A stretch of DNA of 64,000 nucleotides. It comes from Phascolomyces articulosus. Taxonomy: Eukaryota; Mucoromycota; Mucoromycetes; Mucorales; Lichtheimiaceae. The position numbers and the translations under genes were made by a program. The notes beneath the pieces are model-generated. The model saw only the letters and a list, made by a program, of their open reading frames with translations. It did no database searches and was not told the origin of the DNA. Positions 741-38,608 of the stretch are shown here, piece by piece. Location: positions 806,001 through 870,000 of the forward strand of contig JAIXMP010000006.1 of the NCBI GenBank assembly GCA_025677815.1, given 5' to 3'. The first letter of the stretch is position 1; every line of letters begins with the position of its first letter.

Positions 741-3700
741 TTATAATTTAATATGGGTTGTGATGGCGTTTATTGCTGTTGTAGCAATTTGTTGAGGGAT
801 AAAGTGTTTTTCGTCAAAAACAGTTGCCCAGTGAGCTCGCCAAATATGAAGTAATATATATGAACATATGCGTAGAAATTTTTCATTTGGTATTTGCTGT
901 TGTACTCTAGCATTTTTGGTTATTGACTGAAGTATCGCGTATAGCGGTGGATGTGTATGGAAGAGGTGGTACCAAGCTAGGAACCAAACTTGTTTCTTTT
1001 TTGGACACCAGATCAGAAAGTGGTTGAGCGATTCTGTAGGATGTTGGCATATACGGCAGTGAGGAGATGTTACAAATGATGGACTGATTCTGTGTAGTAG
1101 ATTTCCATAAGGAATTGTTGAATGAAAGATTCGGAATAAGATGTTGCGTGTTATGTGGTCCATTTTAGTATACCAAAAGTTATTCCATCTGATGTGATTG
1201 TGTTGAGTATAGTTCGTCTGTTGCGTTTGTATGTGGAGGCGGTATCTTTTTGGTTTGGGAGATGATAATGCATTATGCTGCAGTAGTATATCAGCGAAAA
1301 GTGTATAGTCAACGTTACCGATTTCTCCACTATGACCCCCACCTGGATGATTTTTCGGGAGCAGGAGTGTGGCGAAGAAACGGCGAATAAAGATACGGAA
1401 TTCCTTTGTGTCTGTGAGAAACCGTTTGAGCAGTGTAGGATGCGGAGGGTGGTCGGAAACTTGTAGTGGACGTAAATGTTGTAAATTATGATCAAATGTA
1501 AAGAGGTCTTTTACTTGTAGTGTGTGATAACCCGGTCTAGGAGGAGGTCGGTTGTCAGGGTTCACATCAAATATACTGGTAGCTGGTAGTTGTAGTGACG
1601 TAGCAATTGCCATTGGTGGTGCTACAGGATAGGTGATCGATAGCTGGTCCATAGTACAATAGATAATATTAACTGGTGATGCTGTTGAAATTGCCTTTTG
1701 TTTTCGTGCGTTGGGATCCAAAAGTAATAGACGATGATCAGATATAAATTTACTTGTGCTAGCCATGTGATGAATCAAACATAATATGTGTTCTGGCAAC
1801 GTATCTAGTTCTTCTAGCATTGGAACAATCCATCGTAACTGAAGTGCATTTTGTTGTGTTATTGAATCTAAAAGACCCACCCCTCCTTGAGCTCTTGGTA
1901 AACACATTTTTTTGTAGGAGACCCTTGGGAACATTCGACTTGACAAGAAATTGGATATGATACTTTGAAGCTTTGAGTGAAATTTGTGTACTGGTGCACC
2001 GATCACTCGTAAAATATGCCAAAGTTTTGACAAAATCAGCACATTAAGGATTGTTGCTCGTCCACGAATAGAGAGACCTCGGTGTTCGTGCATTTGACAG
2101 TGGCGTTTGATGTTCTCTAATATGTTTGACATAAATCGGTCCAATTGTCCAGAGGAAGATGACAAAGGAAACCCAAGATATATCAAAGCATCGGTGGAAG
2201 TTCTATCATGACATCCGGGAAGCCCATGTTCCTGCAGGGCTGAACTCCAATCTTCTGATGATGGTTGACCAGACAAAGAGATGGCCTGGGTTTTGGTCTT
2301 GTTGAATTTTGCATTGGAGGCATTCTGGTACGTATTAAGATGCTGGAAAGGAACCTCTAAATCTGTTATATCATGAATGAAAACTAGAATACCGTCTGCA
2401 TATGCCAATGTTTTAATAGGCCGTGGTGCTGGAATTGTTGGAGGTGCTTGATTATGTGTTGTAAATGTATATCCTTGGAAACTGACATCATTTTGAATTG
2501 AACGGAGAAATGGTTCAATGGCTAAGTTGAACAGAATCGGGGACAAGGGATCCCCTTGCCGTAAACCCCTTTGTTGGTGTAGTGTGTTGCTAAGATGACC
2601 ATTGATGTTGATTCGAATATATGTGTTGAAAAATAAAGTAGTAATCGAGTTGATGATGGCTTCAGGAAAACCAAACTTTTTCAAAGTGCTAGTGAGATAG
2701 GCAGGGTGTATGGGGTCATATGCTTTTTCCTGATCTAATAAAAGGCCAATGTCCTTGTTATTGTGTTGTTGAGCGTTTTCCATAATAATACGAGCCGTAA
2801 GTCCATTAGTAGCAATAAAGCGATTTGGCATAAAGCCTGTTTGTTGAGGGTTGATCAGATCCTGTGCATTTTGGACAATCCGCGCATTCAGTAGACGAGT
2901 AAAAATTTTGGCGTCAACATTGATTAAACTAATGGGTCTCCAGTTTCGTAGCTGAGAAAGATCCCCTTTTTTTGGAAGCAGTCGAATTACTGTTTCTGTC
3001 CATGATGTGGGAAATATACCGCGATTTAGAGCATCATTATATACTTTACATACAATATTTTCTGCAGACGGATGTTTGAATACCAACTTCCATATTCCAT
3101 ATGGTAACCCATCTAGTCCAGGGCTGCTTCTTTTTGGTGTTCTTGAAGCACCTGTTATCAAATCGTCCAAAGTAAATTCCTCCATTAAAATTTCTCGATC
3201 AGTATCATTTAGCTGACATTCTGGTGGTATATGTTGATGGAGTTGTTGAATAGCATTATCATCGACTGGTGTAGGAGTATATAGATCCTGGTAGAAAGTG
3301 GTTGCAGCCTCTTGCATAGAGGTTATATTATCGCAGAGTTCGCCAGTTGAGGGATTAATCAATGGTGGAATGTTAATTTGTGTTTGGTTATGTACTGCAA
3401 GTTTCTTGAGATAGCCGGCTGAGGTTTCACCTAGTTCCCTCCAACGAACACCAGCTTTTAGTGCAAGCGTATCGCATGCTTCTTTTTGTGCTATGGATAT
3501 TTGTTTTTCGATGATCGGGAGGAACCACGCTTTAGTTGCTGCAGATGGTTTTTGTCGTAGGAATTTGTTCCGCTTAGATTGTAGTTTGGCAAGATATTGG
3601 GTGGTTTTATTAATACGTTCCCGGCTGTATTTTTGCATAATCTTTTTAAGTGTGGATTTTAATTTTTCCCATTGGTGTTGTGGTGTTTGATTAGGGTCAA

Positions 3701-4526
3701 TACGCTCGAAGAATTGACTTAGCTGAGAAGCCAGTTCTCTTCGGAAGTCCTTGTAGTCAAGAATTAGTGGGTTACCTCTCCAATAGCCTTTACCCGTTTT
3801 CGTTGGCCCCAAGTCGAAGGTGGTTAATAATAAGGCATGATCTGTCCAACTAGTAGCGAGGAAGGATACCTCTTTGTTTTTAATACAATTTTTAAACTGG
3901 GTTGATGCAAACATATAATCAATTGTAGATATTATGCAATTGCCCCTACGAAAAGTTGGTAAATTGTCTTCAGCATTATCGGGGTTGATGCAATTGATGA
4001 ATTCTTGTGTTAACATATTGAACCACTCTGGTGTAGCATTTCTATGGTAGTTTGTTCTTTGGTAGCTGTAGTTGAAATCTCCAGTTATAATTAAACGTTG
4101 ACGATAAGGTTGATTGTTGTCAAAAATTATCGAATTGTACAGATTGGAGTAGAAATTTTGACGGTGTTTGGGTGATGTTGCTGGTGCATACAGTGTAAGT
4201 AAGAAAAAAGGTTGAAAGTCATTGCGTGTATGTTCGACTCTGACAAGGATATGTCGGTGGTCGTTATAGATTTTTAGTTGTGTAAGATTAATATCAGATG
4301 AGAGTGCTACAATTCCACAATGAGCTGTCCAAAAGGATTGTGTTGCACAGAAAGTATTATGTCGTCTTTGTTCTTTTTTAATGTTGTTGACATGTGATTC
4401 TTGAATGGTGATGATGTGTGCTTGTTGAGTACGGAGGTGTCGAATAAGTTGATTTTTGTTTTGGTGTAGGAGTCCATTACAATTGATGGACGCGATTGAT
4501 ATATTATTATTGTTTAATATCATCAT
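741..4526 (-). CDS. LINE ORF2: endonuclease-reverse transcriptase, YADG active site
   Basis: This 1261-residue frame is open from end to end. The N-terminal 240 residues form an AP-type endonuclease: the Glu of IQESH, the LYAPA strand, GDFN, STIDY, and a C-terminal WTDH where SDH is usual. The reverse transcriptase lies near residues 440-760: PISL in the fingers, LLLDQEKAYD with the first catalytic Asp, the RQGDPLSP block, and AYADG at 708-712. The normal motif is YxDD, so the second Asp is Gly712 (GGT, one base from GAT). A C-terminal zinc finger (CRIC...NHFLIWC) matches the zf-RVT type. Function by family: nick the target and copy the element RNA onto it. The endonuclease looks intact; the polymerase is probably impaired. 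The start ATG was chosen as the first Met upstream of the endonuclease strand. Confidence 0.93.
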   Translation of the reverse strand: MMILNNNNISIASINCNGLLHQNKNQLIRHLRTQQAHIITIQESHVNNIKKEQRRHNTFCATQSFWTAHCGIVALSSDINLTQLKIYNDHRHILVRVEHTRNDFQPFFLLTLYAPATSPKHRQNFYSNLYNSIIFDNNQPYRQRLIITGDFNYSYQRTNYHRNATPEWFNMLTQEFINCINPDNAEDNLPTFRRGNCIISTIDYMFASTQFKNCIKNKEVSFLATSWTDHALLLTTFDLGPTKTGKGYWRGNPLILDYKDFRRELASQLSQFFERIDPNQTPQHQWEKLKSTLKKIMQKYSRERINKTTQYLAKLQSKRNKFLRQKPSAATKAWFLPIIEKQISIAQKEACDTLALKAGVRWRELGETSAGYLKKLAVHNQTQINIPPLINPSTGELCDNITSMQEAATTFYQDLYTPTPVDDNAIQQLHQHIPPECQLNDTDREILMEEFTLDDLITGASRTPKRSSPGLDGLPYGIWKLVFKHPSAENIVCKVYNDALNRGIFPTSWTETVIRLLPKKGDLSQLRNWRPISLINVDAKIFTRLLNARIVQNAQDLINPQQTGFMPNRFIATNGLTARIIMENAQQHNNKDIGLLLDQEKAYDPIHPAYLTSTLKKFGFPEAIINSITTLFFNTYIRININGHLSNTLHQQRGLRQGDPLSPILFNLAIEPFLRSIQNDVSFQGYTFTTHNQAPPTIPAPRPIKTLAYADGILVFIHDITDLEVPFQHLNTYQNASNAKFNKTKTQAISLSGQPSSEDWSSALQEHGLPGCHDRTSTDALIYLGFPLSSSSGQLDRFMSNILENIKRHCQMHEHRGLSIRGRATILNVLILSKLWHILRVIGAPVHKFHSKLQSIISNFLSSRMFPRVSYKKMCLPRAQGGVGLLDSITQQNALQLRWIVPMLEELDTLPEHILCLIHHMASTSKFISDHRLLLLDPNARKQKAISTASPVNIIYCTMDQLSITYPVAPPMAIATSLQLPATSIFDVNPDNRPPPRPGYHTLQVKDLFTFDHNLQHLRPLQVSDHPPHPTLLKRFLTDTKEFRIFIRRFFATLLLPKNHPGGGHSGEIGNVDYTLFADILLQHNALSSPKPKRYRLHIQTQQTNYTQHNHIRWNNFWYTKMDHITRNILFRIFHSTIPYGNLLHRISPSFVTSPHCRICQHPTESLNHFLIWCPKKKQVWFLAWYHLFHTHPPLYAILQSITKNARVQQQIPNEKFLRICSYILLHIWRAHWATVFDEKHFIPQQIATTAINAITTHIKL

Positions 4527-4647
4527 TACTAATAGAGATTATAAGTTTATTGTAATCCAGCTGATTTGCCGAATTCTTGTTCCTTTTGTTGCTGCTCTTT
4601 TCGTTGGCTGTTGGATCGTGTGGTGACACCAACATGATTATTTTCTT

Positions 4648-6055
4648 TCATACTGTATTGGGCTTCATATTCTTGTACAAATTGTGCGATTTTTGCTGTA
4701 AAATGATATACAGAATGGCTTGCCATTCTTGGTTAAGATTGGTTTCATGGATTAAACTTTGTCCAACATCAGATATATGCAATTGGTCCATCCAGTCTTG
4801 TTCCAGGTTGAGATTGCTTGCATGCTCCTTGATGTTTTCATTGACTTGTTTGTGATCGGATTCGATAAAAGACAAAATGGCATCGTCCATTTTTTGTTCG
4901 ATAAATCCAAGCTTGTGGTACTCCTCGCTATTATCCATTTCATCAACGACCATATCGCCAGAGTCATTTATGGTAGATTCTGGTTTCTTTGGTTCCAAAA
5001 TAGGAGAAGATTTTGGTTCGGTTTCTTGATCATGTTCATTTCTCAGTAAAGAGAAGGTGTTTTTATTTTGAGAGTGTTGCGTTGGTGTTACGTCCACCAC
5101 ATGTTTTGTTCCTTTTGAGGAGGAAGAAGATGTGTTATGGTTCCCACCAGTTTTACGACGATTGCGTTTACCACCTCCCGGTGTCCATTGTTGACTTGCT
5201 TTGGCAAAAGGACAGCTGTCTGCAAAGTGTGTCTTATCACCACATTTATAACATCCTTGATTGTTACGCTGACCTCTAGGGCAAACTTCTCGAGCATGTC
5301 CTGCTTCATGGCAACGAGAGCAATACAAAGGCATCTGATCAAAGTTGGCATAGATCAGATCGTCTGGATCCCCACGCCAAGGAACATGATGATCCAGTTT
5401 TTTATATTTTTTTTTTTTTTGGACGTTCTTGGATATCAAGGACTGCAAATCCATTTCCCATGTAAGCCTTTGTTTGGGGATCACGGTTAATGCCAACATC
5501 CAATATTTCACCGTAGGATCCAAGTGTCTCTCTTAATCCTATTTCTAACTCGTTTTGATCGAGAAGAGGAAGGTTGGAGAGTCGAACCTTTTGAATTTTT
5601 GCGTTTTTGTCGAGAGCGATAGCTGCTCTGATGTTAATTGTAGAGGAAAATTGGATGCCTTGCATTAGAGCATGCTCTCTTTCTTCCTCTGTTTTTAAAT
5701 TGACTTCAAGATGAACTCGTTTTCCTTCTCTATGAATAAGGATACCTCGGTTCTTAGGAAATATTTCCATGGCTTTGGAAACGGCTTCGTTAACGAAACC
5801 GGGACATGGACTGATATCGAAGATAACACTGCCACTGTTACGTCCTACTCTCCACACACGCGAGTAGTAAGTCACTGTCTTTGGGTCTTTTTCATTGTTT
5901 TGTCTATGTGCATGTACCAGAGATACACGTTCTGCTTGGACTACTCGAGCCCAAGTAAGAACTGGAGCAGGAGATACAAAAGTTGTAGATGGTGTTTGTA
6001 TAGCGGTGCCTGTTTCACGCACAGGCGTTTCTAGTTGGTTGTCGGGAAGAGCCAT
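4648..6055 (-). pseudogene. LINE ORF1 (RRM-like, two zinc knuckles), frameshifted at an A14 tract
   Basis: ORF1 is carried by two overlapping frames. The upstream frame (6055-5402, 217 codons) has a low-complexity N-terminus and, near residues 155-210, an RRM-like fold (VRLSNLP and GFAVLDI as RNP-like strands). It runs into a 14-base A tract (5407-5420) and stops just after it. The continuation is open in another frame to 4648. It carries two perfect CX2CX4HX4C zinc knuckles (CSRCHEAGHAREVC and CYKCGDKTHFADSC) and an acidic Ser-rich tail. ORF1 proteins of this type coat the element RNA. One fewer A would join the frames, so this is either a decay mutation, a homopolymer read error, or a slippage site. 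The spacing to ORF2 is about 120 bp. Confidence 0.85.
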
Positions 6056-31188: not shown

Positions 31189-32560
31189 AGAGATTATTAT
31201 TATTATTATTATTATTACTATATAAGATTCTTTATTATTAGTAGATATTTTAAACGACACCATCATCACTTTAATATATATATGTACACTCTTTTTTATT
31301 TTTACATTTTTAAGTGCTATTACACATATTACACTCGTACATATAAATAATATCAATGAAAACTTGTTTCAACATTAATTTACATATAATAAACCATTTA
31401 TATAAACTCAAGAAAGGCGTTCATACTATGATTCTCATAAACTATTTAATTTTTTGGTCACATTACTATTGTTTGGATAAACATTTAACAATCCAGTAGA
31501 ATATAAATGTGTAGCATCATTAATTATGTAACCTACTGACGGGTGTTGGTTGGTTTTTATGCCGCTGATGAATCGAGTTTCTATTGTTCACTGTATGTGA
31601 GAGGATTTTTTAGATTATGTCCTTTTTGCAGTATTCATCATATCTTAGGTTTCAATGTGTATTACTTTATCCTCAAATGTAATACTTCCCAATAGCCACG
31701 TTAGTAGACTTTGTCAGAGGCATTTACCGACATTTGTTGTGACTCACTCATCTTTTGTAGTTTTCATCAATCTCCAGCTTTTACCAAACATTGTTTCTTT
31801 TTTATAATAATTGGGTTTTTTTTTTTGAGAGTTACCCAACACTTTCGCTTTGTTGCTCTGACGGCAACAGATGATGAACTTGACATATCTAATTTTAACC
31901 AATAAAGAATAATGGACCAACATGAAAATTTTCTGCATGAAATCATAAACTTTGGATATTGGTGAGGATGACCACCATCGGATCATAGAAAGCGAAAGGA
32001 AATACATACGTACTTATTCATTTTCGTATTGACGAATTATATTTTGACAATGCCTATACGTATGATTTTTCTCTTCTTTTGCGTCGAATTCCGGTTTAAT
32101 CATTTATAGTACGTATATAAAAAATAAGCTACTAATTTACTTTTGATAGAGACGAGTCATTCTACTAGTAGCAATGGATGTAGATAGGTACAATGATCTC
32201 AAGTCTTATCAGACTGAAAAAATAAGTCCTTCATACTTTGAAGACAAGCATGAAAACATTATTACACTCAATTAATATATTCCTTAAGCTGACGAAGATA
32301 TCGATAATAGGGGAATATGATCAATTTAAAACACGCATACATATAGAACATCAACGACAAATTGAAAAAACACATTCATGTTTGAGGGAGATCAAGAGAT
32401 TATTATTATTATTATTAGTTAGTTATGAAAAGAGCATGGCACCAAGTAATCTATGTTTTTTTTTTGAAGTATGATTCAGAGGAAACATGCTGTTTCTAAT
32501 ATATATAAAATAGATACAAATGAGATATATCATTCCTTCATACAACAACTACTTTACGTT
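31189..32560. other. Spacer, no gene seen
   Basis: AT-rich sequence after the translocator stop. Only short frames without splice partners are present. I see no RNA gene. Confidence 0.5.
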
Positions 32561-32582
32561 ATGCTCTGGAAAACTTCATCTA

Positions 32583-32975
32583 ACCTTGATCTTTTTTTGA
32601 TTGTTTGCTATTTTGTATTTGTATGTATAAGACTAAGAGGGAAACAAAGTTCCTATTATTTATAATATAAATGAATACCGTTTAATAGACTGATCCATCA
32701 TCTGCTACTTGAGAAATGTTAATCTTATGTATATTTACCTTGTTCTTGTACTTTTTGATTGTGTGTTTTTGTGTATATATAAAAGACTCAGGGAAATCAA
32801 AGTTCTTATTTATATAAATGATATGTGAGTTAGCAAATTCTTTCATATGACTATAATCCATTCATTATCACAGAAATGTTAATTCTATTTACCTTGTTCT
32901 TGTATATTTTTTGTGTGTTTGTTTGTTTTGTATTTTGTATAATATAGTGGAATGTAGTAGCATATACATAAATCT
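32583..32975. repeat. Diverged tandem repeat, period 154 bp
   Basis: The word ACCTTG(A/T)TCTT starts at 32583, 32737 and 32891, exactly 154 bp apart each time. Downstream words recur in the same order: (A)AGACT..GGGAAA.CAAAGTTC, ATAAATGA and GAAATGTTAAT. About two and a half units are visible, with many substitutions. I see no coding function. Confidence 0.75.
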
Positions 32976-33027
32976 ACACAAATGAAACAGGTCAATCTGT
33001 ATCTTTAGAAGTCGATGTTGATCCTCG

Positions 33028-33164
33028 TTACCCATAGTCTTCGAATTTTTCAGGTCGACCTCTCATCATCGGCTCCTAACCATACACACCGGCCCGAGCC
33101 ACTTGTATAGATTCATATAGATACTGTTCGCCCAAAATATTTTTTTGTTTCATTCGCCCATAAT
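33028..33164 (-). pseudogene. Orphan 3'-terminal coding exon with in-frame stop
   Basis: An acceptor (ACATTAG, 33165-33171) opens a frame of strong protein character: DYGRMKQKNILGEQYLYESI, then QVARAGVYG, a TAG at 33076-33078, and further in-frame sequence EPMMRGRPEKFEDYG before TAA. A donor-like CCA/GTAAGT lies about 110 bp upstream near 33270, but I find no upstream exon with similar character. Either TAG is the true end, or this is a decayed exon of a lost gene. I do not recognise the family. Confidence 0.45.
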
Positions 33165-33499
33165 CTAATGTAAATACATGTAAAAACATATAAGAACCTC
33201 GATACATACGTAGTAAGGTGTTGTTGATATATATAGTAAATTATAAATGAATAAATGTTCCATTAAAACTTACTGGACTAAATGCTTTTTTTTTCAATAT
33301 TGCTTGGTGCTATGCTCAAATTTGTGTGTGTGTGTGTGTTTTGTTTTCCCACTTTTTCTCCGTTCTTTTTTGTTTGTTTATTATACCTATACTTTTTTTT
33401 TTGCTCTTAATTGATTGATCCGCAATTACCACTACCACCACCATTACCGCTTCTTGATGATCCCTTTCTTCCATCCCTTTTCCCATAAAAGAGATTGTT

Positions 33500-33905
33500 T
33501 ACTCGGCTAGCCTGCTGGGCCAAGCAGGCAACTTTGGCTTCAGGAGAACAGCTCTCCAGAAATAAAGGCAAGGAAAAAGCTGGAAGCGGACTTGACATGA
33601 TCTGTTCCATACTACGACCAAAGGAACCGGGACAGAGTGAATATAGATTGCACATCTCCAGCCTTTGGATTCTAGCGTGAGGGGCACCAGTGATCCTTGC
33701 AGCATAAGTAGCTGACGTGGGACAAGATGCAAAATGGAGTACACTTGCGGCCATTCCACAGGAATACGTTTTTTTCTTTCCCCACTAGGTAATGCATATG
33801 ACCAGATGATAATAGGAAACAACACCAAAGAACAAGAAGCCAATTGGTATGTATATGGGATACCAAAAAGTTACCGAACTATCTGACAGGATATCAAAGT
33901 CGGTC
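33500..33905 (-). repeat. Lower arm of a 400-bp inverted repeat
   Basis: Read on the minus strand, this arm aligns along its length with the plus strand of 34100-34505. For example, CCTAGTGGGGAAAGAAAAAA at 33789 downward matches CCTAGTGGAGAAAGAAAAAA at 34211 upward. Two overlapping minus frames (33843-33499 and 33754-33407) are open for about 114 codons each, but neither resembles a known protein. The equivalent frame in the other arm has stops. Confidence 0.85.
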
Positions 33906-33921
33906 CATCGTTGTATCTAAA

Positions 33922-33963
33922 ATAACAACTCCATTTTCCCGTTTGGAAAAATGGAATTGTTAT
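33922..33963 (-). repeat. 19-bp stem, 4-base loop hairpin
   Basis: ATAACAACTCCATTTTCCC (33922-33940) and its near-perfect inverse (33945-33963) are separated by GTTT. The two mismatches become G-U pairs in minus-strand RNA and A-C in plus-strand RNA, the same polarity as in the long arms. It lies in the spacer between the long arms. Confidence 0.7.
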
Positions 33964-34099
33964 CACCATTATGACAAATATATATATAACCATTAGTAAT
34001 GATTTTCACAAATAGAAGTTATCATCCATTCACTCATCCACCCATTTTCATTGTCAAAAAAAAGACTACAAAAAACTTACCAGACATATATAGTCCATA

Positions 34100-34505
34100 T
34101 CCACTTGTTTCCGTCGCCAAAATCCATCAATACCTTTTTGATATCCCATATACCTACCAAAAGGCCTTTGCTCCTTGATGTGTCCCTATCACCATCTGGC
34201 AAATACGTTACCTAGTGGAGAAAGAAAAAAATATATTCCCGTGAAACAACCACAAATGCACTCCATTTCACACCTCATCCCACATCAACTACTTATACTA
34301 CAAGAACCACCGGCGCCACACCCCACGCCAGAACCCAAAAACTGAAGATGTACAACCTATATTCTCCCTGCCCCAATCCCTTTGACCATAGCACGGAACA
34401 AACCATGCCAAACCCAACTCCCAGACTTTTCCCTTACCTTTATTCCTGAAGAGCTGCTCCCCATCCACCAAAGCTGTCTACTTGACCCAGAATTTTTCTA
34501 GCCAC
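34100..34505 (+). repeat. Upper arm of a 400-bp inverted repeat
   Basis: Partner of 33500-33905. Similarity is visible from about 34100 (CCATATACCTACC against CCATATACATACC) to 34505 (TTCTAGCC against GGCTAGCC). A plus frame shares LPSGERKK and HSISHLIPHQLLILQ-type sequence with the lower arm but then hits stops. There are a few short indels. Confidence 0.85.
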
Positions 34506-35115
34506 CCCTATAGATTAAATATAAATGATCGAATCAGCTTCATGTTTTATACAATAATAATATTTATTATTTATATAAACCTTATCTGATGGCACCAGGG
34601 CCATTACCTACGCCGAGATATAGATACGGCGGAGCTGCGGCTCTTCTAGCCACGCTATAGATAATACACAAATGAATGATCGATCAGCATGATAATCATA
34701 AAAAAAGCAACATATAATAAATTTACCATATAAGAAAACTTACCTCATGGCACGAGAGCCATGGCTTACGCCATAAGAAAATACGGCGGAGCAAAACTCA
34801 AACAAAGCGGATGCAATCAGGCCGAGCAAACGACACCTATACATTGAAACAAAAAAGAATCATTTAGATACCAACGTTATAAAGTAGCATAATAATAATT
34901 AAGGAATAATTGTAATAATCAACATACCTCTATTGGCAATAACAGCCAAGTCTATCGCGCCAATAAATAAATCAAAGCCTACAAAACTACAAAAAGAAAG
35001 CAAAAAAAAAAAAAAAAAACTATAAAGATACATTAGTAACGTTGCTACAGAAGAATCATGCATTGTACTGAGAAATTAAAAATGGTATTGTTGCTTACCT
35101 CTATGCGCGACAAAT
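34494..35115 (-). repeat. Tandem modules of about 150-170 bp with splice-like borders
   Basis: TTCTAGCCAC..CTATAGAT recurs at 34496 and 34644 (148 bp apart), each followed by AAATGATCGA, an AT-rich stretch, ATGGCAC..G.GCCAT, TACGCC and ATACGGCGGAGC. A second pair, ACCTCTAT..CGCG..AATAAATA, is at 34926 and 35096 (170 bp apart). Each module carries a small hairpin (ATGGC/GCCAT at 34588-34603 and 34747-34762; TTGGC/GCCAA at 34933-34949). Read on the minus strand, the GC-richer blocks look like exons: good donors (GTAAGC at 35097, GTATGT at 34927, GTAAGT at 34743) and CTATAG-type acceptors. No continuous protein frame runs through the blocks. Confidence 0.6.
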
Positions 35116-35118
35116 AAA

Positions 35119-35255
35119 TATGGGTATAATAATGGATATAAAAAAAAAGGGTATAAAAAGAAAGGGTATAAGAAAAGGGTATATATAAAGGTAAAGGCAT
35201 CAAAAAAGGTATAAAAAAGGGTATAAGAAAGAAGGTATCTAGAAAAGGGTATCAT
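35119..35255. repeat. Purine-rich GGGTATAA minisatellite
   Basis: About ten imperfect copies of the unit GGGTATAAnAA(A) lie in a row, all with purines mostly on the plus strand. It sits at the upstream (minus-sense) end of the tandem modules. No gene is seen from here to about 36230. Confidence 0.75.
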
Positions 35256-36235
35256 AATAAATAGAATAAATAGGTGGTTGCTGATCCTAATATTATAAAA
35301 TATAACATGAATTAGTTCCTATGTTACAGTAACTAAAGATAACAATAGATAATAGAATCGTAACTTACCAATAAAATATATATAAAGAGAGATAATACAT
35401 AGAGTTTTTTTGTTAGTTTTTTTTTTACTTTTTTTTGTAAGCTTATCGATAATTTTTATAGAGAGCAGAAGAAAAATATATATGCGTAGTAAGTCACCAC
35501 TTATTCTAGACTCTAGACGATATGAAAACACCTTTGGACTTGTGACGTAATATAGATTTTCTGAAGAAAAATGCGTCGATGAACAATGATATTGCAACAT
35601 TTATATTTTGACAATAACAACAACAATGCGGTTCTACTGCCGGATGTAATGGTCAGTTATAATTAATGGCATTTATTATATTCTAAAGGAGTAGCATGTG
35701 TGATAGTGGTGTTCTCCCTTTTTTACTCGAGAGAGGCATCGCAGCAAAGTTGATTTACATAAGAACAACAGAAAAACAGGTTTGTTGCCATGTAGTAGTA
35801 AAACTTTCATATTTTCTACTGTCACTGTGGGCGACACATACTTTTTAAGCATCAATGTATCGTTTTTTATTCATATTACGTCATAGTACACAGTCCCTTT
35901 TCATTTTGCTTTCTAATAGCTGAATGAATATATCCGCTGTTTTTATCTATGTCTAACATAGAATAACAAAGATTCTTAAAACAAAGGTCATATTCTCATT
36001 ATGCTCTTTATTGAACTGGTTTCGTTATTGGGTTTAAATAATGGACAGGATTATAATGGTCCATTTTCAGTATTTTGGCAACACTGCGTTTAAAAAGTAT
36101 AACAAGCCTCGAGTAGGTACCTACTAGTAACAATATCTTTTGTCTATTGCATAACTGCTGCACAAATGTTTTCTACTTTATTGATCCTCCTCTTTTTCCC
36201 TTATTTACGTTGAAAAAAATAATACAAATATCCAG

Positions 36236-36669
36236 TACAAGCTGTCGCCTTTATATTAACGTTCACAAAAGTTTATTGGATGAATTATGGTATGAACTCT
36301 TAAGAAGTATCAAATCTAGAGTGGTTATGTTAAAGTTTGGGCTTAGAATATTGTTTTGTGTAATAGTGTTACTGTATTGCATAAAGACGTGCAGATGAAA
36401 TGAAGCTGATTTTTTTTTGTTCTACTTTAATCAACTATAAGTTTATGATCTTACTTTATAGTCGTTCAGCAGCAGTGAATCAAACATTCAACGATATGAT
36501 TAAAAAAAATTCATATTATCGAAGTCGATTTGACGAAAAAAAAGTAAAGAACAATAAATACTCTTTTCTTTACTTAATCGTCTACATATAAACAAATATT
36601 ACTCATTATTTTTATTTATAGAGTGCTCTTTCAAGTTTTGGCGGAGCTACTCGTAACATGTCACACTAG
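36236..36669 (+). pseudogene. 3' part of a spliced gene, N-terminus not found
   Basis: Three blocks join in frame with good splice sites: 36236-36289 (acceptor ATATCCAG, donor GTATGA), 36462-36543 (acceptor TTTATAG, donor GTAAAG) and 36622-36669 (acceptor TTTATAG, ending TAG). Together they read about 60 residues, including LYINVHKSLLDELC, RSAAVNQTFNDMI, YYRSRFDEKK and SALSSFGGATRNMSH. The consistent phases argue that this was or is a real gene. Upstream I find no exon or start codon that fits. I do not recognise the protein. It ends about 280 bp before the HET gene and could be a truncated neighbour or a decayed copy. Confidence 0.4.
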
Positions 36670-36863
36670 TTTAGTGAGAAAAAGGTAAATTTATAAGCCT
36701 TACGTACTTCATTTTTTCTTCTTTTCTATTTAGCACTTCCATCACTACCCTTCATTTGACAAAAAATTCTTAAAAGGACACGTATTTACTACCATTAAAA
36801 TCCATCACCACTTTATATTCTCTTGCAATTTTTCTAATAGTACCATCCGTTTCTTCTTTATCG

Positions 36864-36947
36864 GTGAGTAAGCACCTCTCTTTTTAATTTCTATTATCTA
36901 CGATTCTATTAAAACTAACTTGTCAAACTTATTTAATGTAACCATAG
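36864..36947 (+). other. Probable 5' UTR intron of the HET-domain gene
   Basis: A GTGAGT donor at 36864, a branch-like CTAACTT at 36916 and an ATAG acceptor at 36944-36947 lie five bases before the ATG at 36953. Confidence 0.55.
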
Positions 36948-36952
36948 AAATA

Positions 36953-38608
36953 ATGTATATTACCTACGAGACGGTACAATATTCTTTGAATGACGTATAC
37001 AATACCGCCAAACGTGTAAAAAAATATAAAAAAGTTCCCAATGATTTGCCCAAACCAGACTTTATGCCTACCAAACTTGTTCGTATTTCTGATATGAAAG
37101 TAGTCGATGGATCTCAAGTGAACGAAGGTTACTGCGCATTATCGTATTCATGGAATCAATCTGGTGATATAGAACAAGATGACAATGGAAAATACGTACG
37201 AGTCGATGATGGCAAACACGAGATTATTTCTTATGACAATATTTTTCCTGATATGATTATTCCTTTTTACAAAATTGACTATGAATATCATCACTCAATA
37301 CCATTGAGTAAACTGAAAAAAATGTATTTTGTTTTGGAGATCATGGAGGATAAAAATTACTACTTTACAAAAACAGCCAAACAAGTCAAATTTGACGGCA
37401 TCATTCAGCAAATATGTCAACAATTCAACATCAAATATATATGGTACGATCAATTATGCATCAATCAAAACAATAAAGAAGAAAAACACCATGAAATACG
37501 CAACATGCATCACATATACGAAAATGCTTATTGCACCGTTGCACTCGTACCTGAATACTCTGATAATCAATACTTAAACACAAGTAAAAATCAATATTTT
37601 AAACGTTTATGGACTTTAGAAGAAGCAATAAAGTCAAAAAGATTGTTATTCGTCGGAAGAAATGAACATAGTTGGGGAGACTGTACATCTCTTGAAATAG
37701 GTGATTTAGCAAGATCATCTGAACTAAACGTTTCGAAAATTCTATACCACGCACATCAACGAACAAGCACCAAAGACCACGACCGTGTTTTTGCCCTCAT
37801 CCATCTTTTCCCAGAATTCATGGACGAAATCAGCATTGATTACGATCAAAAATTTGAAGACTTGATGATTCAATTTTACATTCTTTTAGCAAAAAAGGAC
37901 ATCAGCATTCTGCTCTTTCGAAACAAATATGATTATAAATCAACAATCGAAAAATACAAGTTTTTGCCATCATGGACCGGTGTTAATGGTCAACACTTTA
38001 CATATCATATAACGACTTCATTTCAAGATCACGATATAATTGGAAATACCATGCATGTTACAACTACTTATGCTACAAACAACCTATCCATCGATGATGA
38101 CAATTTAACTCTACGAGAAGAAGATATACCAACAATTCCTAAAAATATCAAATTTATTCATGAAAAACGAAACTATCATTTGATTATACTTGTTCAACTA
38201 TCTAAAGCAAAAGAAATGAAAAAAATCGATATGGATTATTATGGTCACTATTGGGATTTTGATGGCGACTCATTTTTAGATGAAATATCTGAAAAACTTC
38301 AACAATTATCAAGGTTCATGGAGATAAAAAAGGAAAACTTGTATTGGTGTAACATATATAGCGATGATTATCGAACGGCTGCAAGGATTGATCTTGATTA
38401 TTTAACAGACAGTTTGGATAATCCTTCTGCACAATATGTCATCCTTTCTGAAATTTCGTTTAAAAGTGGAAGTCTTTGCTTCTATCCCGTCATAAAAAAG
38501 GAACAAGGAGAAGAATATTATAAAGCTATTGGATGTTGTAGAATAGATAGTAATAAAGAATTTTTCTCTGACTGTAATTTAAACAAAGAAACATTTTTGA
38601 TTCAATAA
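36953..38608 (+). CDS. HET-domain (heterokaryon incompatibility-like) protein
   Basis: One exon, 551 residues from the first ATG (MYITYETV). The HET hallmark blocks are present in order: YCALSYSWNQSG (about 60-71), KYIWYDQLCINQNN (about 162-175) followed by the HxIRNMHHIYENAYCTVALV helix and strand, and RLWTLEEAI (about 215). DHDRVFALIHLFPE and ISIDYDQKFEDL, typical of the region after HET, follow. The C-terminal 250 residues match nothing I know. In ascomycetes HET domains trigger cell death when incompatible strains fuse, and they are related in fold to TIR domains. Mucorales have no known vegetative incompatibility, so the job here is open. Codon use is AT-rich like the surroundings. The neighbours are repeats and a gene fragment. 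Confidence 0.9.
   Translation: MYITYETVQYSLNDVYNTAKRVKKYKKVPNDLPKPDFMPTKLVRISDMKVVDGSQVNEGYCALSYSWNQSGDIEQDDNGKYVRVDDGKHEIISYDNIFPDMIIPFYKIDYEYHHSIPLSKLKKMYFVLEIMEDKNYYFTKTAKQVKFDGIIQQICQQFNIKYIWYDQLCINQNNKEEKHHEIRNMHHIYENAYCTVALVPEYSDNQYLNTSKNQYFKRLWTLEEAIKSKRLLFVGRNEHSWGDCTSLEIGDLARSSELNVSKILYHAHQRTSTKDHDRVFALIHLFPEFMDEISIDYDQKFEDLMIQFYILLAKKDISILLFRNKYDYKSTIEKYKFLPSWTGVNGQHFTYHITTSFQDHDIIGNTMHVTTTYATNNLSIDDDNLTLREEDIPTIPKNIKFIHEKRNYHLIILVQLSKAKEMKKIDMDYYGHYWDFDGDSFLDEISEKLQQLSRFMEIKKENLYWCNIYSDDYRTAARIDLDYLTDSLDNPSAQYVILSEISFKSGSLCFYPVIKKEQGEEYYKAIGCCRIDSNKEFFSDCNLNKETFLIQ

What the first reader, a model, noticed from the sequence alone, without database searches (positions are those of the whole stretch)
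33500..34505. Long inverted repeat whose differences preserve G-U pairing only in a minus-strand RNA
Arms of about 400 bp face each other around 34000. In the roughly 135 bases outward from 34211/33789 I count about 31 substitutions. All are transitions, and all but one are A (upper, plus) against G (lower, minus) or C against T. In the next 95 bases (34365-34459 against 33638-33546) some 24 more show the same polarity. Each such change turns a Watson-Crick pair into G-U in a minus-strand transcript, and would give A-C in a plus-strand one. Random transitions would split evenly. Two explanations remain: selection to keep a hairpin RNA folded (a natural silencing trigger or structured RNA), or strand-specific C-to-T or A-to-G mutation or editing after duplication. 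Transversions are more frequent toward the loop. Mucorales are known for hairpin-triggered Dicer/Argonaute silencing.
Basis: partly seen in the sequence, partly recalled or inferred. Interest (0 to 1): 0.88.

Follow-up and report, generated by a model that had tools for sequence, protein, structure and literature searches.

The report
Fungal hairpin RNA kept by selection
A mould genome carries a family of about a dozen long RNA hairpins whose letters drift freely while the base pairing of one strand is preserved, which suggests that the double-stranded RNA itself is what the cell needs, probably to feed gene silencing.

Summary
The two arms (33515-33873 and 34131-34490) differ by 67 transitions that give G-U on the minus strand and 3 that do not. 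The genome, identified as Phascolomyces articulosus (Mucorales), has 12 full-length copies among the loci I fetched, and each shows the same polarity.

From Watson-Crick pairs, 80 transitions keep minus-strand pairing and 12 break it. In loop and flanks the same two classes are 58:57, so there is no strand-specific mutation bias. Changes run both ways: A>G 56, G>A 53, C>T 29, T>C 41. This is selection for pairing in a minus-strand RNA; G-U is tolerated close to neutrally. A control with copies that lost an arm points the same way but rests on one copy.

The hairpin has a likely intron in its loop and a second conserved hairpin downstream. Argonaute, RNase III (Dicer-like) and RdRP genes are present. 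I infer, without RNA data, a natural long hairpin that Dicer cuts; a non-RNAi role of the dsRNA is not excluded. Natural hpRNAs are known in flies; the papers I saw describe none of this sort in fungi.

The parts
34131..34490 (-). 5' arm of the long hairpin (in the minus-strand RNA)
33515..33873 (-). 3' arm of the long hairpin
33874..34130 (-). loop of the unspliced hairpin (257 nt)
33917..34080 (-). predicted intron inside the loop (164 nt): GGTAAGT donor in 9 of 11 copies (GGAAAGT in the sister copies L013 and L014), TAG or CAG acceptor in 11 of 11; splicing would leave about 93 nt between the arms
   Evidence: prediction only, coordinates worked out by hand
33922..33963 (.). small palindrome inside the predicted intron (20-bp stem)
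   Evidence: (other copies)
34081..34507 (-). predicted exon holding the 5' arm (acceptor CTATAG at 34508-34513)
   Evidence: prediction only
33480..33916 (-). part of the predicted exon holding the 3' arm; its far end is not determined and 33480 is only where my fold stopped
32960..33124 (-). second conserved hairpin of the same strand (58 predicted pairs; minus -54 to -67, plus -36 to -46 kcal/mol in 8 copies), the most widely kept part of the unit
35363..35369 (-). upstream donor-like GGTAAGT, present in the 8 copies shown
32365..35435 (-). hairpin repeat unit as present in the window; other copies run on to about 4.6 kb and several carry an upstream ORF that is missing here

Best explanation
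This is one of 12 full-length copies (at least 22 loci hold the conserved second hairpin) of a minus-strand RNA gene family in Phascolomyces articulosus, with several predicted introns. Its transcript folds into a stem of about 360 bp, closed by a loop that probably holds a spliced intron. Shown: purifying selection keeps base pairing in the minus-strand RNA. Shown: G-U pairs are accepted close to neutrally, so the sequence drifts while the duplex stays. Inferred: the duplex is a natural long-hairpin (hpRNA) substrate that Dicer cuts into siRNAs loaded into Argonaute. Inferred: because the letters drift and no outside target was found, the substrate acts mainly as a source of dsRNA or siRNAs for its own family and locus rather than for one fixed target.
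For: Each of 12 full-length copies has the polarity: 67:3, 80:0, 88:2, 90:2, 89:3, 88:1, 87:1, 23:0, 23:0, 47:1, 52:1, 47:4 (copies are related). Transitions from Watson-Crick pairs 80 keep: 12 break, against 58:57 for the same classes in loop plus flank. U changes about 0.37 per site when paired with G, 0.04 when paired with A; G changes 0.50 with U, 0.05 with C. Transversions 0.040 per paired site, 0.125 loop, 0.172 flank. Pairs defined by arm homology instead of folding give 136:12, 140:13 and 114:20. Subfamily III alone: of 32 variable pairs, 23 keep pairing by transitions, 4 are broken by transitions, 5 by transversions. Predicted spliced hairpin -577 kcal/mol against 20 mononucleotide shuffles -255, s.d. 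8.5. Four Argonaute loci, one locus with two RNase III domains (Dicer-like; its other domains not checked) and five RdRP loci. An introduced hairpin RNA triggers silencing in Mucor (PMC4395119, passages). Depositors' gene models run on the same strand.
Against: No transcript or small-RNA evidence was available. No target outside the family was found by DNA similarity (capped candidate lists), although a single siRNA-sized match would be missed. Two copies lack the intron donor. Twelve of the 23 fetched loci lack a complete hairpin (8 of 19; 4 of 4, picked for that). The single-arm control depends on one copy. A depositor's gene model reads part of the 3' arm as protein (P0010). Selection on pairing does not by itself imply Dicer.
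Confidence: 0.55

Rival explanations
1. The stem is kept as a structural or regulatory dsRNA element with no siRNA function, for example a 3'-UTR duplex controlling retention, stability or splicing of a transcript that once encoded a small membrane protein.
For: In other copies the hairpin lies downstream of an ORF on the same strand, and a depositor's model ends, by my reading, in a small exon just upstream of the hairpin exon. Selection is seen on pairing. A second, bulged hairpin is even more widely kept.
Against: The ORF is absent from the window copy and broken or lost in several others while the hairpin stays, so regulation of that ORF cannot be the main use.
Confidence: 0.27
2. The unit is a mobile or selfish repeat, and the hairpin serves the element itself (self-silencing, or RNA stability during spread).
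For: At least 22 dispersed loci, near-identical pairs 11-40 kb apart, decaying copies.
Against: No convincing terminal inverted repeats in 4 copies searched and no shared clean ends among the 10 copies printed. No transposase- or RT-sized ORF in the unit in the 3 copies listed (not searched with Pfam). Copies look like segmental duplicates.
Confidence: 0.13
3. Strand-specific mutation, repeat-induced C-to-T mutation or A-to-I editing copied back into DNA made the polarity without selection.
For: Polarity alone would fit, and a baseline of about 3:1 exists when partners are slid.
Against: Both directions occur (A>G 56, G>A 53, C>T 29, T>C 41); loop and flanks are unbiased (58:57); rates depend on the partner base; the A_deamin family matches at one place only, in two stretches.
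Confidence: 0.03
4. A DNA-level process keeps the arms alike: one strand folds during replication and repair corrects A-C but not G-T mismatches, or arms convert each other.
For: Arms of L015, and arms of the L022 group, are closer to each other than to the same arms of other subfamilies, so arm-to-arm conversion is likely.
Against: Conversion restores identity and gives no polarity. Strand-limited repair would need the same fork direction relative to the hairpin at copies in both contig orientations.
Confidence: 0.02

Closest known systems
Drosophila hpRNA / endo-siRNA loci (for example Nmy, Tmy, hp-ODox; PMC10317233 and PMC10292708, passages seen)
   Same: Long inverted repeat in one transcript, at least one spliced, one born in the 3' UTR of a non-coding RNA, multicopy clusters, spread within a lineage.
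   Different: Fly hpRNAs are defined by Dcr-2-dependent siRNAs and typically resemble their targets; Nmy and Tmy have highly complementary arms. Here there are no siRNA data and no target, and the arms differ by 11-30% yet keep G-U pairing.
Fungal milRNA hairpins (PMC9757828, abstract and passages seen)
   Same: RNA foldback in a fungus with Dicer-like and Argonaute genes.
   Different: [quoted passage not shown] this stem is about 360 bp. [quoted passage not shown]
Hairpin transgenes for RNAi (introduced carB hairpin in Mucor, PMC4395119, passages seen; intron-spaced plant vectors, recalled)
   Same: Long stem; the vectors recalled also have a spliced intron in the loop.
   Different: Natural, multicopy, old enough for 30% arm divergence, rich in G-U.
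Repeat-induced point mutation and ADAR hyperediting (recalled)
   Same: Clusters of transitions in repeats or dsRNA.
   Different: One-directional processes; here the changes run both ways and depend on the partner.

Membership tests
natural hpRNA / endo-siRNA locus | long inverted repeat that folds as a single RNA strand | tested here: met
natural hpRNA / endo-siRNA locus | transcribed across both arms on the folding strand | not testable with these tools
   only splice-like signals and depositors' same-strand gene models
natural hpRNA / endo-siRNA locus | Dicer-dependent small RNAs from the stem | not testable with these tools
   no small-RNA data
natural hpRNA / endo-siRNA locus | host has Dicer and Argonaute | tested here: met
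   (two adjacent RNase III domains; helicase and PAZ of the Dicer not checked); RdRP
natural hpRNA / endo-siRNA locus | complementarity to a target gene | tested here: inconclusive
   DNA search of own genome with three hairpins lists only family members; single siRNA-length matches not tested
fungal milRNA | short hairpin with one dominant small RNA | tested here: not met
   stem about 360 bp; the dominant-small-RNA part was not testable; the second hairpin (58 pairs) was not tested for this
foldback / MITE transposon | shared ends with terminal inverted repeats and target-site duplications | tested here: not met
   ends of 10 copies printed and read by eye, TIR search in 4 copies gave only 10-15 nt matches or none; no separate test for target-site duplications
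RIP-mutated repeat | C-to-T on both DNA strands | tested here: not met
A-to-I hyperedited copy | A-to-G only | tested here: not met
known Rfam structured RNA | score at or above a family's gathering cut-off | tested here: not met
   0 matches in the window; only sR41, 18.4 bits against a cut-off of 54

The most novel reading that the evidence does not exclude
A natural long-hairpin RNA family in a fungus in which double-strandedness itself, not the sequence, is the selected trait. Arms are occasionally made identical by conversion and then drift through G-U steps toward the neutral limit of about one third. The loop intron is a built-in device that tightens the hairpin before Dicer cuts it. 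This would be a sequence-free dsRNA signal or siRNA source upstream of the fungus's own silencing system.
Probability: 0.3. Interest if true: 0.86.

Novelty: new variant of a known kind. Interest (0 to 1): 0.7.

Why it matters
PMC9757828 (passages) says that it still needs exploring whether long hairpin RNAs induce RNAi in organisms naturally. This family gives evolutionary evidence without RNA data: a long duplex has been kept by selection in many copies of a fungal genome, and the strand is known. Its G-U pairs can be read as a clock between arm homogenisation (31 of 360 pairs in L015) and near-neutral saturation (91 of 360 in L013). The polarity test (G-U-keeping against G-U-breaking transitions, with loop and flank as the neutral reference) can be applied to inverted repeats of any genome to find transcribed, selected hairpins and their strand.

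Tried and rejected
Protein coding of the arms: the 115-aa ORF at 33407-33754 has no Pfam match, its start is not kept in L009, and the only protein hit is a hypothetical gene model of the same species. Known RNA family: none at cut-off. tRNA: none. Foldback transposon: no TIR in 4 copies. Strand bias, RIP and editing: rejected by direction and by loop and flank. Control inverted repeats: in 244,519 bases (the window and 19 fetched loci, chosen because they hold the family) there was no other inverted repeat of 100 bp or more, so unrelated repeats could not serve as a control; arm-loss relics were used instead. Relic control, told in full: tips of six relics (L017 truncated, the others single-arm) give 39 keep, 22 break, 31 transversions against 56, 9, 12 for eight intact tips (p=0.0066 and 0.008). 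The stem of L018/L019 (9 keep, 0 break) was left out of that sum; with it 48:22, p=0.023. Without L023 it is 29:9, p=0.28, and transversions p=0.08. Relic branches include time before the arm was lost; 11 relic and 8 intact changes with ambiguous partner and 1 already unpaired were dropped; L018 and L019 tips gave none. So this control is suggestive only; the case rests. An earlier script printed nothing (I put it down to an unsupported scoring choice and repeated it as 16), and one tree script counted nothing because of a rooting error (repeated). The copy tree was typed by hand after the FastTree result. Paired columns were chosen from folds, which favours pairing; one search repeats the test with pairs from arm homology. 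In one search the Fisher tests and rates divide change counts by mean site numbers, so they are approximate. Literature: the ten searches showed no paper on this family, but only the listed top rows were seen (12 of 504, 12 of 174 and 15 of 139); 'Phascolomyces' is in 6 papers, seen as a listing only.

Full report
WHAT IS THERE. The arms 33515-33873 and 34131-34490 align over about 360 columns at 75% identity. They differ by 67 transitions that leave G-U on the minus strand, 3 of the opposite polarity and 11 transversions. Predicted energies for 33480-34510 are -624 kcal/mol on the minus strand and -364 on the plus strand. No Rfam family reaches its cut-off and no tRNA is found.

WHERE IT COMES FROM. 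A Kelch-type protein of the window is 59-60% identical to proteins of Circinella. An ORF upstream of another hairpin copy (L011, on C18) is 100% identical to a Phascolomyces articulosus protein whose contig has the length of C18 (1,066,885 bases). The genome is therefore taken to be this mucoralean fungus.

A FAMILY OF HAIRPINS. The own-genome searches find full-length and partial copies (candidate lists are capped, so counts are lower bounds). Of 19 fetched loci, 11 hold a full-length hairpin, making 12 with the window. Keep:break polarity on the minus strand is 67:3 (window), 80:0, 88:2, 90:2, 89:3, 88:1, 87:1, 23:0, 23:0 (L016, near-duplicate of L015), 47:1, 52:1 and 47:4. Copies are related, so these are not independent. 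The other 8 fetched loci are partial: single-arm (L018, L019, L020, L021, L023), truncated (L017), or without most of the hairpin (L024, L025). A search with the flank found four further loci with the flank but no long hairpin.

SELECTION OR MUTATION. I mapped changes by parsimony on a tree of 11 copies, rooted with the L022 group; the counts are for the seven copies of subfamily I plus L015. At 360 pairs, transitions run both ways in the minus sense: A>G 56, G>A 53, C>T 29, T>C 41. Of 199 counted side-changes, 160 keep pairing (148 one-sided, 12 belonging to two-sided changes) and 39 break it. The cleanest test starts from Watson-Crick pairs, where one transition keeps and one breaks: 80 keep, 12 break. 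In loop and flank the same classes are 58 and 57 (Fisher p=2e-8), so there is no strand bias there. Rates per site depend on the partner: U with G 0.37, U with A 0.04; G with U 0.50, G with C 0.05. The transition rate is 0.23 in the loop and 0.33 in the flank, so pair-keeping steps (0.21 to 0.50) are close to neutral and pair-breaking ones are reduced about five- to eight-fold. Transversions are 0.040 per paired site against 0.125 and 0.172. These rates use mean site numbers and are approximate.

CONTROLS. Pairs taken from arm homology rather than folding give 136:12 (L015 frame), 140:13 (window frame) and 114:20 (L022 frame). Sliding partners by 1-3 columns in the L015 frame gives 323:106 pooled, about 3:1; the excess over that has p=6e-6. 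Part of the raw polarity is thus not due to pairing. In subfamily III alone (3 copies, 348 pairs, gapped pairs dropped), 23 variable pairs keep pairing by transitions, 4 are broken by transitions and 5 by transversions. Relics that lost an arm or part of it show 39 keep, 22 break and 31 transversions, against 56, 9 and 12 on intact tips (p=0.0066 and 0.008). This control leans on L023 (10:13): L020 is 14:4, L021 12:4, L017 3:1; without L023 p=0.28, and adding the L018/L019 stem (9:0) gives 48:22, p=0.023. It is suggestive, not decisive.

G-U LOAD. If only pair-keeping transitions occur at equal rates, one third of pairs should be G-U. Observed, of 360 consensus pairs: L015 31, window 72, L009 79, L010 87, L011 89, L012 88, L013 91, L014 90. 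Arms of L015 cluster together in an arm tree (support 0.85), as do arms of the L022 group (0.995). That fits occasional arm-to-arm conversion followed by G-U drift; conversion is inferred.

ANATOMY OF THE TRANSCRIPT. On the minus strand, donor-like GGTAAGT and acceptor-like TAG sites are shared upstream. In the loop, GGTAAGT is present in 9 of 11 copies (GGAAAGT in L013 and L014) and a TAG or CAG acceptor in 11 of 11, predicting an intron at 33917-34080. Splicing would bring the arms closer (-577 kcal/mol for 864 nt; mononucleotide shuffles -255, s.d. 8.5, n=20). Upstream in several other copies lies a small membrane-type ORF (my reading of its hydrophobic stretches) on the same strand, broken or lost in several; L010 against L011 differ by 4 nonsynonymous changes, one a stop, and no synonymous ones. 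A depositor's 228-aa model continues beyond that ORF; by eye, its last residues fit a small exon just upstream of the hairpin exon. In the window this part is missing: a HET-domain repeat unit begins at about 35438.

A SECOND HAIRPIN. Minus-strand 32960-33124 folds at -54 to -67 kcal/mol in 8 copies, -36 to -46 on the plus strand. Of 58 pairs, 37 never vary, 16 vary and stay paired, 5 are broken in at least one copy. It is the most widely kept part: similar DNA in the window and 21 of 23 fetched loci, and a 30-base stretch at 19 places with up to 3 mismatches against 0 for the reversed control. Over 19 sequences the RNAalifold consensus is weak (-9.86 kcal/mol, 37 pairs, 7 with a two-sided kept change), partly because L030 and the L022 group align poorly at the 5' side.

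HOW IT PROBABLY WORKS. Shown: pairing of the minus-strand RNA is selected, while paired sites change by pair-keeping steps about as fast as loop and flank. Shown: Argonaute (4 loci), a locus with two RNase III domains, two further RNase III matches (one weak) and RdRP (5 loci) are encoded. Inferred: the transcript is made, spliced, folds and is cut by Dicer. An introduced hairpin RNA silences its gene in Mucor (PMC4395119, passages). No target outside the family was seen. The main rival is a structural or regulatory dsRNA element unrelated to siRNAs; present data cannot separate the two.

COMPARISON. Fly hpRNAs are the closest working analogue (PMC10317233, PMC10292708, passages), but their defining tests (Dicer-dependent siRNAs, target homology) could not be met here, so membership is not claimed. 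PMC9757828 (abstract and passages) re-assesses fungal hairpin small RNAs and says it still needs exploring whether long hairpins act naturally.

Noticed in passing
35438-38608 +: HET-domain gene (PF06985) of a very large family: 117 matched stretches listed and 422 first-look candidates (79 scored) in this genome. Its repeat unit starts within a few bases of the end of the hairpin unit.
   Followed up: partly
741-6055 -: Non-LTR retrotransposon-like ORFs (long ORF with nuclease- and RT-like sequence by eye, and a zinc-knuckle ORF).
   Followed up: no
34583-35100 -: Upstream small exons tend to end in a short CATGGCC..GGCCAT palindrome just before the 5' splice site, with repeated exon-like units (TGGCTAGAAGAGCC); seen by eye.
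   Followed up: no
32960-33124 -: Second hairpin with a near-invariant stretch of about 30 nt, kept even at loci that lost the long hairpin; function unknown.
   Followed up: partly
G000 C18:480901-482900: An RdRP gene lies between two hairpin copies on C18 (459 kb and 490 kb), about 7 kb from the second.
   Followed up: no
L010/L011, L013/L014, L015/L016: Near-identical hairpin units occur in opposite orientation 18-40 kb apart on C18 and C15 (93-98% over about 4.1-4.6 kb).
   Followed up: partly
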